Below are positions 10,555 through 40,576 of a DNA stretch of 57,462 bases, one piece after another (within the stretch, counting starts at the first letter, position 1; each line of letters begins with the position of its first letter). Both the position numbers and the translations under genes were made by a program. Under the pieces are notes generated by a model, which did not search any database, was not told the DNA's origin, and saw only the letters and a list, made by a program, of their open reading frames with translations. Source of the DNA: Candidatus Auribacterota bacterium (GTDB lineage Bacteria > Auribacterota > Ancaeobacteria > Ancaeobacterales > Ancaeobacteraceae). The stretch covers positions 1 to 57,462 of the forward strand of contig JAKLEM010000009.1 in NCBI GenBank assembly GCA_022711655.1, written 5' to 3'.

Positions 10555-13500
10555 ATGATGAAGAAAATATTCGGCATTATTACATCGATGCTCCTGCTCA
10601 GCGGCATATATGTGCATGCGCTGCCTCCAGAGAAATGCTCGCTTGCTCCAGAATCGATCTTCCGAAATGACGCAAATGAACAAACGGCAAATGAAAGCGG
10701 GCTGATCGGAAAAAAAACCCGTTTTGAAGGGATAGAGGGCAGGGAAATAATCGCAAAGGATGCAGATGGGACTGTGCGCCGTCTCCCCTATACCGAGATG
10801 GGGGCGATCGATCTTGACTGGGTCCTTCAAAAGTCGCTGACCGATCCGAAATACGGCGGTATAGTGATGACTCTCACGTCAGTGCTTAAGGATATCCCGC
10901 TTGAGGAGTCGCCCCGTTTTGTGCAATTTGCCGGTGAGTGCGGCGATATGTTCGGTTTCGCCTCTGTGAAGGACCAGCTTATCGGGATCCATCAGTCGAT
11001 CGCCGACGATCCTGCGGTGCCCCTGTTTCATGAGGTCGAGGAATATCTCATCGAAAAGGGACTAATAAAACTCGAATTGAACAGCCGGATGGTCTCGGCA
11101 GCCTTCAACAAGTTATTCAAAGTTCTCGGCGTGTATCGGTTTATGCCCTCTGCAGGGATTTTTGGCGGCGAGATCGTGATCATGAAGAGCGGTGCGAGAG
11201 GCGCGGGCTTTAGGGAGATGAGGCGCGTGCCGATCTCGGGAGACGCTTTTTCGATCGTGCGAAAGGGGCCGACCGATCCGCACTATCTCATACGCGCTTT
11301 ATCGCGCGAGATATATGGCGCATCGGATGTTGCGCTGACAGGCAAGATCAAACAGTTTCAGGGAAAAACTGTCGAGTCCTCATCAACAGCCGCCAGTGCA
11401 TCATCGGCAACCGCCGGTGAGGAATTGAGTCCGGAGAAGAGGGCGGAGATTCATAATAACATTGCATACTGGAGAGGAAATAACGTCATTCGCTCGTCGT
11501 CGGTAGAGCCGCTGCACACGATCATTGACCGTATGGCGCCGTATGTGAACCTCGATAAGGATGCTCTTGAGATGGTTAGCGAGATGCTCGGCCATCGCGA
11601 TCGGGGAGTATTTATGCATGCGCTGAAGGCCCTGGAGAAGTGCGAGCGCCAGGAACTGTATGCGTATCTGGCCGCTAACATGGACATCATGGAAGAAGAT
11701 CGAGCGCTCATCATCATCACGACCCTGAAAAACAGGAAAACTCCCCGGCTTGTTGATATCGTAATGCGCGCAGCGAAGAGCAGGAACCTGAAAGTGCGCA
11801 AGGTTGCGGTCATAACGCTTGTAGAATGGAAAGACCCTCGTACGCTTCCTGCGCTGCGCGAGGCGCTTGCCGATACAGATCCTTTTATCCGCGCTTACGC
11901 GATACGAGGTATTATCGCGCTGCGCGACACCTCCGCATATCTTACGGTGCTTCAGATGGCCGGCGATCTTGACGCGCATGTGAAAACGCTCGTGAAGCTG
12001 GCGATGCCGGAGATTCGGGACGCGCAGTACATATCTCCCCTGATAAAGATGCTGAACGACCCGAGGATAAGGATCGCTGATAGTGCGTGCGAACAGTTGG
12101 CGCGTTTTGCCGCGGAAGGCGTTGAGACCGATACGATCATTCCGCAGATAAAGGATCGGACACTCAACAAGTATGATCCCAGGCAGTCGCTGCGGTTCGG
12201 GGACAATCGGGTGACGGCCCGGCTTATCATAAATCTGATCTACCGGCAGAACGAGATCGATGCGAAGACACTCGATCCCCTGACCATCATGAAGATCTAC
12301 GCGAATAAGGCATTCGGTCAGCAGACGGAAACGATGAGTTACGCCAATCAATATTCGATCGCGAGGGGTATCGAACTCGCGTTGAAAAGGTTCTCGCTGC
12401 CGGCCGCCAACGAGAACATCGAGACACTGTTGCCGTATCTCTTGCGGGTGTGGAAAGAACATGCGGGAAGGGTCATCCTGGATAAAGACTCGACATTGAT
12501 CGTCGGCTGTAACGAAGGGGCAGCGGAAGATGCGCCTAATGCGTTGATGTTTGTGACAAAATTCAATCTCAGGCAAGACAACATATTGTTCTATACGGGA
12601 AGCAGAGATAAACAGCGCCTTCTCAAGGCGATCGGAGAATTGCATAAGAACGGGACGCTCTGGCTGCTGGGACATGGGGGAAAAACGCACTTCTGGCTTG
12701 AAGGCGGTGAAGAGAATAACACAGTGATCCCCGATCTGCATCCCAGGGAAGGTGTCAGCTATGTCGAGCTGGCTGATGCCCTGGTCCGGCGCGCAAAACA
12801 GTCGGATGGGAGCCTGTCGGATATCACTATTCTTATTGATTCGTGCCTCTCGGCAGATCTTGCGGCGCGGGTCTATAATCTGCTGCAAAAAGAAGCGGTC
12901 GTAAAAGGCCTTCCTGTCATGGTGACGCTGGTCAATCGCGGCGCTATCGGAACGCATAACTACATCGAAGGGGGGCTCATGGTGAGCAGCGCCCGCGCAT
13001 CCTTGAGCACGAACAGGGCTCTTATCATGGAGGATGTTCACAAGATCGAGGACGCCCATGCCGGCGATCAGGATCTGGCTTTCTTCTATCCCGTTGCTCA
13101 GGAGGTATTCAAGCAACTTAAGAGCGATCTGGGAGTGCGCGAAGACGCTTTGCTTTCGAGCGGCGGCTCAGCGAGCTTGGTCTACGGCGACAGTTCACTA
13201 GATTCCAGGTTGGCGGTCCTTGACGTGTTCGAGCCGCTTTATAAGACAGGCGGTACGCCGTCTGGCGAGCCGGTGATGTATACCGAAGCTGACGGGGCTC
13301 GCAAACAGCTGGTATTCCCCGCAGACGAACCGGCCGCTTCCGTCGCGATGAAGATCGAGCGTGCTCTGAAAGAAAGAGATGGAGATGCGCCGAAACACTT
13401 AGAGAAAACGATCGGTGTTTTACAGCGGTATTTCAGGGCAATACGTGCAGATTGGCCCGACACGATAGAGATCCGGGATAATGTTGCTCATTACGCGGCG

Positions 13501-13824
13501 CTTGACGGCCGGAGGGTTGTGCTTGACAGGTCGTTGCTTTCAATGGATGTTCCCGCTGTTGATCTTCTTCCGTTCTTATCTTTCATAATCAGCCATGAAT
13601 GCACGCATGCGTATGCAAAGGACGAAGCAGAGGCGCGCAGGCTGGATAGCATACGATTAGCAGCATATAGCAAACGACATCGGACCGGGGTCTATACTAT
13701 GTTGCTTCGATTGAAGGCAGATTCCGCATATCTTGCCGATCTTGCGTTGCCGATGCCGCCCGCGATGAAGCAAGATGCAGAAAGCGATGTCATGACATCG
13801 AAGATGCTTGAATCACGGGCGTAA
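10555..13824 (+). CDS. exported multidomain protein: HEAT-like repeats, caspase-like dyad, HExxH motif
   Basis: A 1089-residue protein. The frame is open far upstream, but that part overlaps the antiporter gene in another frame; ATG 10555 (or 10558) gives a clean signal peptide (KKIFGIITSMLLLSGIYVHA), so the protein is exported. Residues 25-275 form an unknown domain beginning CSLAPESIF. A Ser/Ala linker (about 277-288) follows. Residues 310-560 look like HEAT/ARM repeats (LVDIVMRAAKSRNLKVRKVAVITL, ALREALADTDPFIRAYAIRGI). At 703-709 WLLGHGG (His707) and at 760-764 LIDSC (Cys764) match the His and Cys boxes of clan CD caspase/CHAT-like peptidases. At 1014-1018 HECTH fits HExxH of zinc peptidases, with Glu-rich DEAEARRLD after it. 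Its bases are visibly less GC-rich than the flanking genes, which suggests transfer. Protease activity is inferred. Confidence 0.75.
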   Translation: MMKKIFGIITSMLLLSGIYVHALPPEKCSLAPESIFRNDANEQTANESGLIGKKTRFEGIEGREIIAKDADGTVRRLPYTEMGAIDLDWVLQKSLTDPKYGGIVMTLTSVLKDIPLEESPRFVQFAGECGDMFGFASVKDQLIGIHQSIADDPAVPLFHEVEEYLIEKGLIKLELNSRMVSAAFNKLFKVLGVYRFMPSAGIFGGEIVIMKSGARGAGFREMRRVPISGDAFSIVRKGPTDPHYLIRALSREIYGASDVALTGKIKQFQGKTVESSSTAASASSATAGEELSPEKRAEIHNNIAYWRGNNVIRSSSVEPLHTIIDRMAPYVNLDKDALEMVSEMLGHRDRGVFMHALKALEKCERQELYAYLAANMDIMEEDRALIIITTLKNRKTPRLVDIVMRAAKSRNLKVRKVAVITLVEWKDPRTLPALREALADTDPFIRAYAIRGIIALRDTSAYLTVLQMAGDLDAHVKTLVKLAMPEIRDAQYISPLIKMLNDPRIRIADSACEQLARFAAEGVETDTIIPQIKDRTLNKYDPRQSLRFGDNRVTARLIINLIYRQNEIDAKTLDPLTIMKIYANKAFGQQTETMSYANQYSIARGIELALKRFSLPAANENIETLLPYLLRVWKEHAGRVILDKDSTLIVGCNEGAAEDAPNALMFVTKFNLRQDNILFYTGSRDKQRLLKAIGELHKNGTLWLLGHGGKTHFWLEGGEENNTVIPDLHPREGVSYVELADALVRRAKQSDGSLSDITILIDSCLSADLAARVYNLLQKEAVVKGLPVMVTLVNRGAIGTHNYIEGGLMVSSARASLSTNRALIMEDVHKIEDAHAGDQDLAFFYPVAQEVFKQLKSDLGVREDALLSSGGSASLVYGDSSLDSRLAVLDVFEPLYKTGGTPSGEPVMYTEADGARKQLVFPADEPAASVAMKIERALKERDGDAPKHLEKTIGVLQRYFRAIRADWPDTIEIRDNVAHYAALDGRRVVLDRSLLSMDVPAVDLLPFLSFIISHECTHAYAKDEAEARRLDSIRLAAYSKRHRTGVYTMLLRLKADSAYLADLALPMPPAMKQDAESDVMTSKMLESRA

Positions 13825-37360: not shown

Positions 37361-40300
37361 ATGACATTATCCGATTTCTCGATCAAGAACCCCGTCTTCG
37401 CCTGGATGCTGATGATCGGCATCATCGTCTTCGGCTGGATCGGCTTCGACCGGCTGGGGGTGAGCCAGCTGCCCGACGTCGATTTCCCCGTCGTGTCGGT
37501 GGCCGTCACTTGGGAGGGGGCCGCCCCCGAGGTGATGGAGACGGAAGTGACCGACGTCATCGAGGACGCGGTGATGAGCGTCGAGGGGATCAAAGAGGTG
37601 ATCTCGCAGTCGCAGCAGGGGTACGCGCAGATCACCATCGAGTTCGACCTCGACCGCGACATCGACGCCGCGCTCCAGGAGGTCCAGACAAAGATCGCCC
37701 AGGCCCAGCGGACACTTCCCCGCGACATCGACCCGCCGATCGTGACCAAGACCAACCCCGAGGACCAGCCGATCATGTGGATCGCCCTCTCCGGCGACGT
37801 GCCGCTCAAAGAGCTGACGCACTACGTCAACGAGTTCCTCAAAGACCAGTTCACCACGGTCAAGGGGGTCGGCAACATCTTCATGGGCGGCTACATCCCG
37901 CCGAACCTCCGCGTCTGGCTCGACGCGAAGAAGATGCAGGAGAAGGAGTTCACCGTCGAGGACATCCTCAACACGATCAGCTTCCAGCACGCCGAGCTGC
38001 CGGCAGGCTACATCAGCGCCGGGCCCAAGGAGATCAACGTCCGCGTCTACGGCGAGGCGGCCACCCCCAAGCAGTTCGAGGACATCACCATCCACCAGCG
38101 GGTGCGCGGCGGGCCGATGTGGAAGCAGTTCCGGATCGGCGACGTCGGCACCGTCGAAGACGGGCTGGCCGATATCCGGCGCATCTCGCGCAGCTGGGGG
38201 CAGACGGCGATCGGCATGGGGCTGGTCAAGCAGCGTGGGACCAACGCGGTGACGGTGGCGAAGGCCGTGAAACAGCGGATCGCCGAGATCGAGAAGATCC
38301 TGCCGCCCACGATGCGCCTCCGGATCGTTTTCGACGCGACGCAGTTCATCAAGGAGTCCGTCCACGAGCTCGAGTTCAACCTGATACTCTCGGTGATCCT
38401 CACGTCGCTGGTCTGCTGGTTTTTCCTCGGGTCGCTGAGCGCCACGATCAACGTCCTCCTGTCGATCCCGACGTCGCTCATGGGCGCCTTCTTCGTTATG
38501 TATTTTTCCGGCTTCACGATCAATACCTTTACGATGCTGGGGCTGTCGCTGGTGATCGGCATCGTCGTCGACGACTCGATCATGGTGCTGGAGAATATCT
38601 CAAGGTACCAGGAGCAGGGGATGACGCGCCGCGAGGCGGCGCTGGTTGGCGCCCGCGAGATCACCTTTGCCGCCCTTGCGGCGTCGGTGGCGATCCTGGC
38701 GATCTTCGTCCCGGTGATCTTCATGGAGGGGATCATCGGCAGGTTCTTCTTCCAGTTCGGCGTTACCATCTCGGTCGCGGTGATGTTCTCGCTGGTCGAA
38801 GCGCTCACGATCACGCCGATGCGGTGCGCGCGGTTCCTGAAGGTCGGCCACACGACGCGTTTCGGCAGGCTCGTCGACTCCCTGATGCACGCCTCGGCGC
38901 GCGGCTACCGGTGGCTGCTGACGGGTTTCCTGAAGGCGCGCTTTGTCGTGCTGATCCTCGCGGCGGCGGTCTTCCTCGGATCGGTCTACCTGCTGCCCAA
39001 GATCAAGAAGGAGTTCGTCCCGGCGCAGGACCAGGGGCGCTTCCGCGTCAAGATCATGATGCCGCTCGGCTCGTCGATCGAGAACACCGACGCCGCCTTC
39101 AGGGCCGCGGAGGATATCCTGATGAAGCGGCCCGAGGTTGAGCACGTCTTCTGCGCGGTGGGCAGCACCACCGGCGGGCAGGTCAACCAGGGGTTCATGA
39201 TGATCACGATGAAGCCGCGCGAAGAGCGGCCGCCGTCGCCGTCCGTACCGCCGGGGCCGCCGCGCGGCCTGCGTCCGGCGGTCTTCAAGGCGGTCACGCG
39301 GCTCTACCCGGCGGCCGTCAATTGGGGATCGTTCAAAGGATGGGGCAGGCCGAAACCGGTCAGCCAGCAGGAGTTCATGGTGACGGTGCGCAAGGAGCTC
39401 TCCGCGATCCCCGGCGTCGACCGCGTCGTGGTCCAGGACCTGTCGCTCACCGGGTTTACCGCCAAGCGCGGCTTTCCGGTCGAGTTTACCGTGCAGGGGC
39501 CGGACTGGGACAAGCTCGGCGCTCTCTCCACCGGGATCATGCAGCGGATGAAGGACTCCGGGATGATGAGCGACATCGATACCGACTACCAGCTCGGGAT
39601 GCCCGAGCTGCAGGTCTATCCCGACCGGTTCAAGGCGGCCAAGCACGGCGTGAGCGTCCTCTCCGTCGCCGACACGATCAACGCGATGATCGGCGGCATC
39701 CGCATGGGGAAGTTCACCAGCCGCGGCAAGCGCTACGATATCCGCATCCGTCTCGCCGAGGCCGACCGGACGAGCCCCAAGGACGTCCAGAAGATGTGGG
39801 TGCGCAACCAGTTCGGCGAGGTCGTCGCGCTCGGCGACGTCGTGACCACAGAGGTCAAGCCGACGCTCTTCTCGATCACGCGCAAGAACCGGGAGCGCGC
39901 CGTTACCGTCTACGCGAACCCGTCGCCGGGCCACTCCCAGCAGGAGGCGCTCTCCGCGGTGGAGAAGATAGCGAAGGAGACGCTGCCGGACGGCTACCAT
40001 ATCGTCTTCAGCGGCGGCGCACAGGCGTTCCAGGAGTCGTTCAGGAGCCTGATCTTCGTGCTGGTCCTCGGGATATTCGTCGCCTACATGATCCTGGGGA
40101 CGCAGTTCAACAGTTTCGTCCACCCGGTCACGGTCCTGCTGGCCCTGCCGTTCAGTGCGACGGGGGCGTTCGCCGCACTGTATTACACGCAGACGTCGCT
40201 GAACCTCTACAGCATGATCGGCCTGATCCTCCTGATGGGGATCGTGAAGAAGAACTCGATCATGCTGGTCGATTTCACCAACGTTCGACGGGAGAAGGGT

Positions 40301-40576
40301 ATGGGGGTTCGCGAGGCGCTTTTGGACGCTTGCCCGACGCGCCTGCGGCCGATCCTGATGACCTCGATCACCGTCATCGCCGCTGCCGTCCCCCCGGCGC
40401 TTGCCGTCGGCCCCGGCGCGGAGACGATGGTCCCGATGGCGCTGACCGTCATCGGCGGCGTTACCTTTTCGACGGTGCTGACGCTGTTCGTCGTGCCATG
40501 TGCGTACGAGGTTTTCTCGAAATTCGAACGGCACGATCGCGAGAGCGAGGATACGCGCGGCGCCGCCGCAACGTAA
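37361..40576 (+). CDS. RND family efflux permease (HAE1-like)
   Basis: A complete 1071-residue proton-driven pump. It begins SDFSIKNPVFAWMLMIGIIVFG and has the usual order: TM1, first periplasmic domain, TM2-6 with GLSLVIGIVVDDSIMVLENI (the TM4 Asp pair), second periplasmic domain, TM8-12. The second domain contains a Pro-rich insert (SPSVPPGPPRGLRP) near residue 632. No membrane-fusion (adaptor) gene is seen before tolC or after this gene, unlike usual operons. The substrate is unknown; the adjacent LpxL-like gene suggests lipid or envelope-related export, which is inference. Confidence 0.93.
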   Translation: MTLSDFSIKNPVFAWMLMIGIIVFGWIGFDRLGVSQLPDVDFPVVSVAVTWEGAAPEVMETEVTDVIEDAVMSVEGIKEVISQSQQGYAQITIEFDLDRDIDAALQEVQTKIAQAQRTLPRDIDPPIVTKTNPEDQPIMWIALSGDVPLKELTHYVNEFLKDQFTTVKGVGNIFMGGYIPPNLRVWLDAKKMQEKEFTVEDILNTISFQHAELPAGYISAGPKEINVRVYGEAATPKQFEDITIHQRVRGGPMWKQFRIGDVGTVEDGLADIRRISRSWGQTAIGMGLVKQRGTNAVTVAKAVKQRIAEIEKILPPTMRLRIVFDATQFIKESVHELEFNLILSVILTSLVCWFFLGSLSATINVLLSIPTSLMGAFFVMYFSGFTINTFTMLGLSLVIGIVVDDSIMVLENISRYQEQGMTRREAALVGAREITFAALAASVAILAIFVPVIFMEGIIGRFFFQFGVTISVAVMFSLVEALTITPMRCARFLKVGHTTRFGRLVDSLMHASARGYRWLLTGFLKARFVVLILAAAVFLGSVYLLPKIKKEFVPAQDQGRFRVKIMMPLGSSIENTDAAFRAAEDILMKRPEVEHVFCAVGSTTGGQVNQGFMMITMKPREERPPSPSVPPGPPRGLRPAVFKAVTRLYPAAVNWGSFKGWGRPKPVSQQEFMVTVRKELSAIPGVDRVVVQDLSLTGFTAKRGFPVEFTVQGPDWDKLGALSTGIMQRMKDSGMMSDIDTDYQLGMPELQVYPDRFKAAKHGVSVLSVADTINAMIGGIRMGKFTSRGKRYDIRIRLAEADRTSPKDVQKMWVRNQFGEVVALGDVVTTEVKPTLFSITRKNRERAVTVYANPSPGHSQQEALSAVEKIAKETLPDGYHIVFSGGAQAFQESFRSLIFVLVLGIFVAYMILGTQFNSFVHPVTVLLALPFSATGAFAALYYTQTSLNLYSMIGLILLMGIVKKNSIMLVDFTNVRREKGMGVREALLDACPTRLRPILMTSITVIAAAVPPALAVGPGAETMVPMALTVIGGVTFSTVLTLFVVPCAYEVFSKFERHDRESEDTRGAAAT

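What the first reader, a model, noticed from the sequence alone, without database searches (positions are those of the whole stretch)
10555..13824. Exported protein joining HEAT-like repeats, a caspase-like His/Cys dyad and a HExxH motif
In one 1089-residue exported chain I see a signal peptide, an unknown N-domain, HEAT/ARM-like repeats, LLGHGG (His707) followed 55 residues later by DSC (Cys764) as in clan CD peptidases, and HECTH (1014-1018) as in zinc peptidases. Caspase-like domains paired with repeat scaffolds are known in bacterial defence and surveillance, but I know of none with this order and an export signal. It could be an envelope protease with two catalytic modes, or a substrate-activated toxin. 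Lower GC than neighbours suggests transfer.
Basis: partly seen in the sequence, partly recalled or inferred. Interest (0 to 1): 0.82.

Follow-up and report, generated by a model that had tools for sequence, protein, structure and literature searches.

The report
Exported double protease on HEAT scaffold
A little-known uncultured bacterium, related to the Omnitrophota, makes an exported protein that combines a caspase-type protease and a probable zinc protease on a helical scaffold; the same parts recur inside that group's unexplained giant proteins, so they may show how those giants are cut up or act.

Summary
Window 10555-13824 encodes an intact 1089-residue protein with a signal peptide, HEAT repeats, a His707/Cys764 pair and HECTH (1014-1018). 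The dyad is a caspase-fold active site: Cys is kept in 26 of 26 aligned members and His in 25 of 26; AlphaFold gives pLDDT 87 / pTM 0.87; Foldseek returns caspases, MALT1 and legumain-type enzymes (E down to 1.3e-5); the profile also meets the GPI8 transamidase active site. HExxH plus a following Glu and Asp are invariant in 11 of 11 members. A relative passes Pfam's M48 cut-off, but the fold search is not significant, so a gluzincin is likely rather than proven. The N-domain recurs in Omnitrophota-type giant proteins and carries HExxE, possibly a third zincin-like module. The whole HEAT-caspase-zinc order was found in one other genome of the same family, twice inside a 3843-residue protein; elsewhere the modules occur separately, mostly in giant ORFs. 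Neighbouring genes are housekeeping, so neither a defence locus nor a toxin-immunity pair is seen. Best reading: an exported protease in which the caspase module cleaves its own chain or a scaffold-bound partner. Activity and target are untested.

The parts
10555..13824 (+). gene for the 1089-residue exported protein (P0001)
10555..10620 (+). Sec signal peptide, residues 1-22 (cleavage after VHA is a guess from the usual rule)
   Evidence: hydropathy; inspection
10642..10656 (+). LAPES, residues 30-34: the LAPxS tag shared by many giant exported proteins of this lineage
10699..11373 (+). N-domain (residues 49-273), shared with Omnitrophota-type giant proteins; H159-E160-x-x-E163-Y164 and H243-Y244 conserved
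11563..12174 (+). HEAT repeats (about residues 337-540)
12187..13158 (+). helical lead-in plus caspase-like (clan CD) domain, residues 545-868
12673..12675 (+). His707 of the catalytic dyad (GHGG)
12844..12846 (+). Cys764 of the catalytic dyad (DSC)
13156..13224 (+). low-confidence linker between the two protease domains (residues 868-890), candidate self-cleavage region
   Evidence: pLDDT under 50 (end of the modelled piece, so partly an edge effect)
13225..13743 (+). gluzincin-like zinc-peptidase domain, residues 891-1063
13594..13608 (+). HECTH, residues 1014-1018
13624..13626 (+). Glu1024, invariant, candidate third zinc ligand; Asp1031 (13645-13647) also invariant

Best explanation
It is an exported protease built from the module kit of Omnitrophota-type giant proteins: N-domain, HEAT scaffold, clan-CD (caspase-fold) cysteine peptidase, C-terminal gluzincin-like peptidase. 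Shown here by computation: the caspase fold and conserved dyad; the conserved HExxH+E site; the shared modules and their placement between a repeat scaffold and a variable downstream domain. Inferred: the signal peptide takes the protein to the periplasm or cell surface; the HEAT solenoid and N-domain bind a partner; the caspase domain then cleaves, most likely its own chain at the linker before the C-terminal domain and/or sibling giant proteins, so that the metallopeptidase is freed or switched on. Cleavage specificity, trigger and target are unknown.
For: Dyad: Cys 26/26, His 25/26 in the alignment, relatives at 16-36% identity to the window protein; both kept in 4 of 5 held-out members read. 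Model pLDDT 86.8, pTM 0.87; Foldseek probability 1.00 to caspase-11/-4/-7/-3/-8, MALT1 and legumain-type enzymes, E 1.3e-5 to 1e-3. Profile against PDB sequences: GPI8 transamidase E 0.0036-0.01, His and Cys in register. Zinc domain: H, E, H, E, D invariant in 11/11, HExxH+E in 4/4 held-out; HExxH on a helix; relative at 20.8 bits against the M48 cut-off of 20.3. Architecture: two HEAT-caspase-zinc units plus a further LRV-zinc unit in one 3843-aa protein; in Omnitrophota, caspase modules lie in ORFs of median 2139 aa, often behind HEAT or other helical repeats and ahead of varied domains (histidine-kinase ATPase, methyltransferase, N-domain), and in G011 one is followed by a weak intein/Hint-like match. 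Caspase-like processing peptidases just upstream of a C-terminal effector, sometimes in arrays, are described for polymorphic toxins (PMC3482391).
Against: No activity, cleavage site or localisation data. The zinc-domain fold search is not significant. No known effector other than the zinc domain follows the caspase domain in this chain, so self-release is an analogy. One G001 caspase copy has lost the HGG loop, one held-out member has lost the Cys (L156) and one aligned member has lost the His (L083), so some modules may be inactive.
Confidence: 0.5

Rival explanations
1. It is a secreted attack or nutrient protease: both catalytic domains cut proteins of neighbouring or prey cells, the HEAT and N-domains give adhesion, and no self-processing is involved.
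For: Exported, two conserved protease sites; giant ORFs of Omnitrophota are proposed to serve attachment or predation (PMC10066038).
Against: No adhesin or carbohydrate-binding domain was found in this chain; related modules are mostly buried in the middle of very long chains, which suits self-processing better.
Confidence: 0.25
2. It is an envelope quality-control or regulatory protease (like the M48 protease BepA, or site-specific regulatory clan-CD enzymes): HEAT repeats bind envelope clients, which are then cut.
For: M48-like zinc domain (BepA and ZMPSTE24 among the non-significant fold hits); housekeeping neighbourhood.
Against: Present in only 2 of 44 genomes of the phylum, too patchy for housekeeping; no outer-membrane assembly genes were recognised beside it.
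Confidence: 0.15
3. Defence or surveillance effector (caspase-like protease on a repeat sensor), as with NACHT-HEAT-metacaspase or CHAT proteins.
For: HEAT repeats beside a caspase domain; a NACHT-HEAT-metacaspase is described in Trichodesmium (PMC3501461); a PADLOC HEAT-ARM model matches the repeats (E 2.4e-7).
Against: Signal peptide; no NACHT, nuclease or other defence gene among the neighbours scanned; the PADLOC match covers only the generic HEAT region.
Confidence: 0.05
4. The modules are mostly structural remnants in fast-evolving giant proteins, with catalytic residues kept by recent common descent only.
For: Some copies have lost a catalytic residue or loop.
Against: Dyad and HExxH+E are among the most conserved positions while overall identity is about 20% for the caspase module.
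Confidence: 0.05

Closest known systems
3843-residue protein G001:C37 (same family as the window; locus L034:4315-15843:-)
   Same: Signal peptide, HEAT, caspase-like and HExxH domains in the same order (34-36% identity over the aligned region); LAPxS tag
   Different: Two full units plus a third zinc domain behind LRV repeats; predicted membrane helices between units; the N-domain profile finds nothing in this protein
Giant ORFs of Omnitrophota (PMC10066038)
   Same: Long multi-domain chains with few annotated domains; contain the caspase module (25 of 384 genomes), zinc module (9) or N-domain (41)
   Different: Usually far longer; none of the 384 genomes holds both the caspase and the zinc module
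Clan CD peptidases: caspases (C14), legumain and GPI8 (C13)
   Same: Fold, GHG and (D)xC dyad in register
   Different: No Pfam peptidase family reaches its cut-off on this protein; the pairing with HEAT and a C-terminal zincin and the export context differ
Caspase-like processing peptidases of polymorphic toxins and related exported toxins (PMC3482391)
   Same: Exported long chains; caspase-like domain just before the C-terminal domain; arrays of caspase domains occur
   Different: No adjacent immunity gene, no RHS or filamentous repeats, no recognised toxin domain
M48 gluzincins (ZMPSTE24, BepA) and minigluzincin abylysin
   Same: HExxH with a downstream Glu; a relative passes the Pfam M48 cut-off; these proteins recur among fold hits
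   Different: Fold hits not significant; Glu only 5 residues after HExxH in the window protein; Asp 7 residues further on
NACHT-HEAT_PBS-metacaspase of Trichodesmium (PMC3501461)
   Same: HEAT repeats directly before a caspase-type domain
   Different: That protein has NACHT and no zinc domain is described; no export signal is described for it in the passage read

Membership tests
Clan CD (caspase-hemoglobinase fold) cysteine peptidases | caspase-hemoglobinase fold | tested here: met
   model pLDDT 86.8, pTM 0.87; Foldseek E 1.3e-5, probability 1.00
Clan CD (caspase-hemoglobinase fold) cysteine peptidases | His-Gly ... Cys dyad at the ends of core strands | tested here: met
   His707 25/26, Cys764 26/26; each just after a predicted strand (156-161 and 214-218 of the model)
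Clan CD (caspase-hemoglobinase fold) cysteine peptidases | peptidase activity | not testable with these tools
   needs protein
Named Pfam families (Peptidase_C13, C14, CHAT) | reaches the curated cut-off | tested here: not met
   no hit for P0001; best in the family is C13 at E 0.15
Gluzincins / M48 | HExxH plus a downstream Glu ligand | tested here: met
   residues invariant 11/11, held-out 4/4; metal binding itself not tested
Gluzincins / M48 | curated profile score | tested here: inconclusive
   G001 relative 20.8 against 20.3 bits; window protein itself no hit
Gluzincins / M48 | fold | tested here: inconclusive
   HExxH on a helix; best zincin hits E 0.42-1.2, abylysin probability 0.54
Polymorphic toxin systems | adjacent immunity gene and variable C-terminal toxin | tested here: not met
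   a formyltransferase-domain gene follows, no small gene between
Omnitrophota-type giant proteins | shared export tag and modules | tested here: met
   LAPxS tag and N-domain shared
Omnitrophota-type giant proteins | ORF over 20 kb | tested here: not met
   3.27 kb
Bacterial defence systems with caspase-like effectors | cytoplasmic, with defence partners nearby | tested here: not met
   signal peptide; housekeeping neighbours

The most novel reading that the evidence does not exclude
The giant exported proteins of Omnitrophota and their neighbours are self-processing polyproteins: built-in caspase-type modules cut the chain, in places releasing metallopeptidases, and the window protein is a compact single-unit version.
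Probability: 0.25. Interest if true: 0.8.

Novelty: new variant of a known kind. Interest (0 to 1): 0.55.

Why it matters
What the giant ORFs of Omnitrophota do is openly described as poorly understood, with few annotated domains (PMC10066038), and whether huge proteins are cleaved after synthesis is an open question (PMC11573180). A caspase-type family below Pfam's thresholds, with an intact active site, recurring inside such chains, makes the cleavage idea testable; this 1089-residue protein is small enough to express. It also adds an exported caspase-plus-metalloprotease architecture to the known range of bacterial caspase homologues.

Tried and rejected
Scan of 85k GTDB genomes with the caspase-zinc alignment A1 found nothing, but it used two short patterns and missed relatives later found by profile, so it is no evidence of absence. 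Sequence search of the PDB with the whole protein gave essentially only HEAT-repeat proteins, mostly designed. Zinc-domain and N-domain profiles against PDB sequences gave nothing convincing. N-domain against zinc-domain profile: HE motifs align, but E 0.052 and probability 1%, suggestive only. Trees of the caspase and zinc domains are mostly unresolved and could neither show nor exclude transfer. Defence context sought and rejected. Literature: no open paper holds both Omnitrophota and caspase. The window's phylum was not named by any tool; it is a small group of 44 held genomes, and it appears distinct from the phylum of the Omnitrophota MAG L045/G044 (384 genomes drawn under separate handles).

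Full report
Observation. The ORF at 10555-13824 is intact and translates as described: 1089 residues beginning MMKKIFGIITSMLLLSGIYVHALPPEKCSLAPES. It has a single N-terminal hydrophobic signal; the other hydrophobic stretch (994-1012) lies in the predicted zinc domain. HEAT repeats are certain (HEAT_2 E 9.5e-15; designed HEAT proteins in the PDB). His707, Cys764 and HECTH 1014-1018 are in place; the His-Cys distance is 57.

Relatives. In the window's own phylum (44 held genomes) the caspase-plus-zinc region matches one other genome in full, G001 of the same family, where a 3843-residue exported protein carries two HEAT-caspase-zinc units and a further zinc domain behind LRV repeats. The three zinc domains of G001 are 77-88% identical, whereas its two caspase domains are 39.5% identical, so the zinc module was probably duplicated or homogenised independently of the caspase module. 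A third genome, G011, has the caspase module in a 6021-residue ORF, followed by a weak intein/Hint-like match. The N-domain led to Omnitrophota MAGs. Among 384 genomes of that phylum, 25 hold the caspase module, 9 the zinc module and 41 the N-domain; no genome has both caspase and zinc modules, while caspase and N-domain co-occur somewhat more than expected (7 against 2.7, Fisher P 0.011; three of the N-domain genomes were chosen for having it). They share an ORF in several cases (L072, L077, L083, L097).

Caspase-like domain. Across 26 aligned members (relatives at 16-36% identity to the window) Cys764 is invariant and His707 is missing once. Of five further members not in that alignment and readable in the output, four keep both residues and one has lost the Cys. 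AlphaFold2 on the alignment gives pLDDT 86.8 and pTM 0.87 with alternating strands and helices, His just after one strand and Cys just after another. Foldseek's best matches are caspases, MALT1 and legumain/asparaginyl endopeptidases, 48 with E at most 0.001. TM-scores are modest (about 0.4 by query, which includes a helical lead-in; up to 0.61 by target), so this is a distant family. The sequence profile independently meets GPI8 at its active site. No Pfam peptidase family recognises it.

Zinc domain. In 11 members H1014, E1015, H1018, E1024 and D1031 are invariant; four held-out members keep HExxH and the Glu. The model (pLDDT 83.3, pTM 0.75) puts HExxH at the end of a long helix and the Glu at the start of the next. 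Foldseek gives nothing significant; zincins (ZMPSTE24, abylysin, BepA, BlaR1) recur in the list at E 0.4-3.9. The G001 relative passes the Pfam M48 cut-off narrowly (20.8 against 20.3 bits). I conclude a gluzincin-like peptidase, probable but not proven.

N-domain. Residues 49-273 belong to a domain family with HExxEY and a later HY. One member has HExxH (L097). Its HE motif aligns with that of the zinc domain in a profile comparison, without significance. It may be a third zincin-like module.

Context. Neighbours are a glycosidase-type gene, a Na+/H+ antiporter, a formyltransferase-domain gene, a DUF2079 membrane protein, an AMP-binding (acyl-CoA ligase-type) enzyme and a PAS histidine kinase. 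GC is 53.2% against 60.5%; three N-domain or LAPxS proteins of the same genome are at 60-62%. This fits a distinct history but does not establish transfer.

Mechanism. Shown by computation: caspase fold, conserved dyads, shared modules, and the order repeat scaffold - caspase - downstream domain. Inferred: export, partner binding by HEAT, cleavage by the caspase domain, release or activation of the C-terminal metallopeptidase. The inference leans on polymorphic toxins, where caspase-like processing domains sit just before the C-terminal effector and may occur in arrays (PMC3482391). It is not a polymorphic toxin by membership: no immunity gene and no recognised toxin domain.

Novelty. Caspase-type domains on repeats, and HEAT with metacaspase, are known (PMC3501461). 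The exported HEAT-caspase-gluzincin combination and its ties to Omnitrophota-type giant proteins were not found in the open literature searched; that library lacks preprints and most subscription papers. I rate it a new variant of a known kind.

Noticed in passing
window 10642-10656; L034, L035, L036, L037, L053, L118, L121, L122, L125, L126: A LAPxS tag follows the signal peptide within about 5-25 residues in many exported proteins of this lineage; a profile finds 11 matches in G000 and 27 in G001 (weak ones included), nearly all in ORFs of about 550-9500 aa. Possibly a sorting or processing signal.
   Followed up: partly
L040 / L043 (G011:C24): Caspase module in a 6021-aa ORF, followed by a hydrophobic stretch and a weak intein/Hint-like match (Pfam Intein_splicing E 0.00095, below cut-off).
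   Followed up: partly
L034 (G001:C37): Three zinc domains 77-88% identical next to caspase domains only 39.5% identical: recent duplication or homogenisation of one module within a giant gene.
   Followed up: partly
L035:793-1308:- and L035:5819-6328:-: Another HExxH domain (FHEICHE / FHELCHE with a downstream Glu) in two proteins of the window's genome, one of them giant.
   Followed up: no
L069, L071, L079: Caspase modules of Omnitrophota giant ORFs followed by a histidine-kinase-type ATPase domain or a methyltransferase domain, odd if these proteins are exported.
   Followed up: no
window 37361-40576 and 25-2235: Two RND-type (AcrB family) efflux genes in one 57-kb contig.
   Followed up: no
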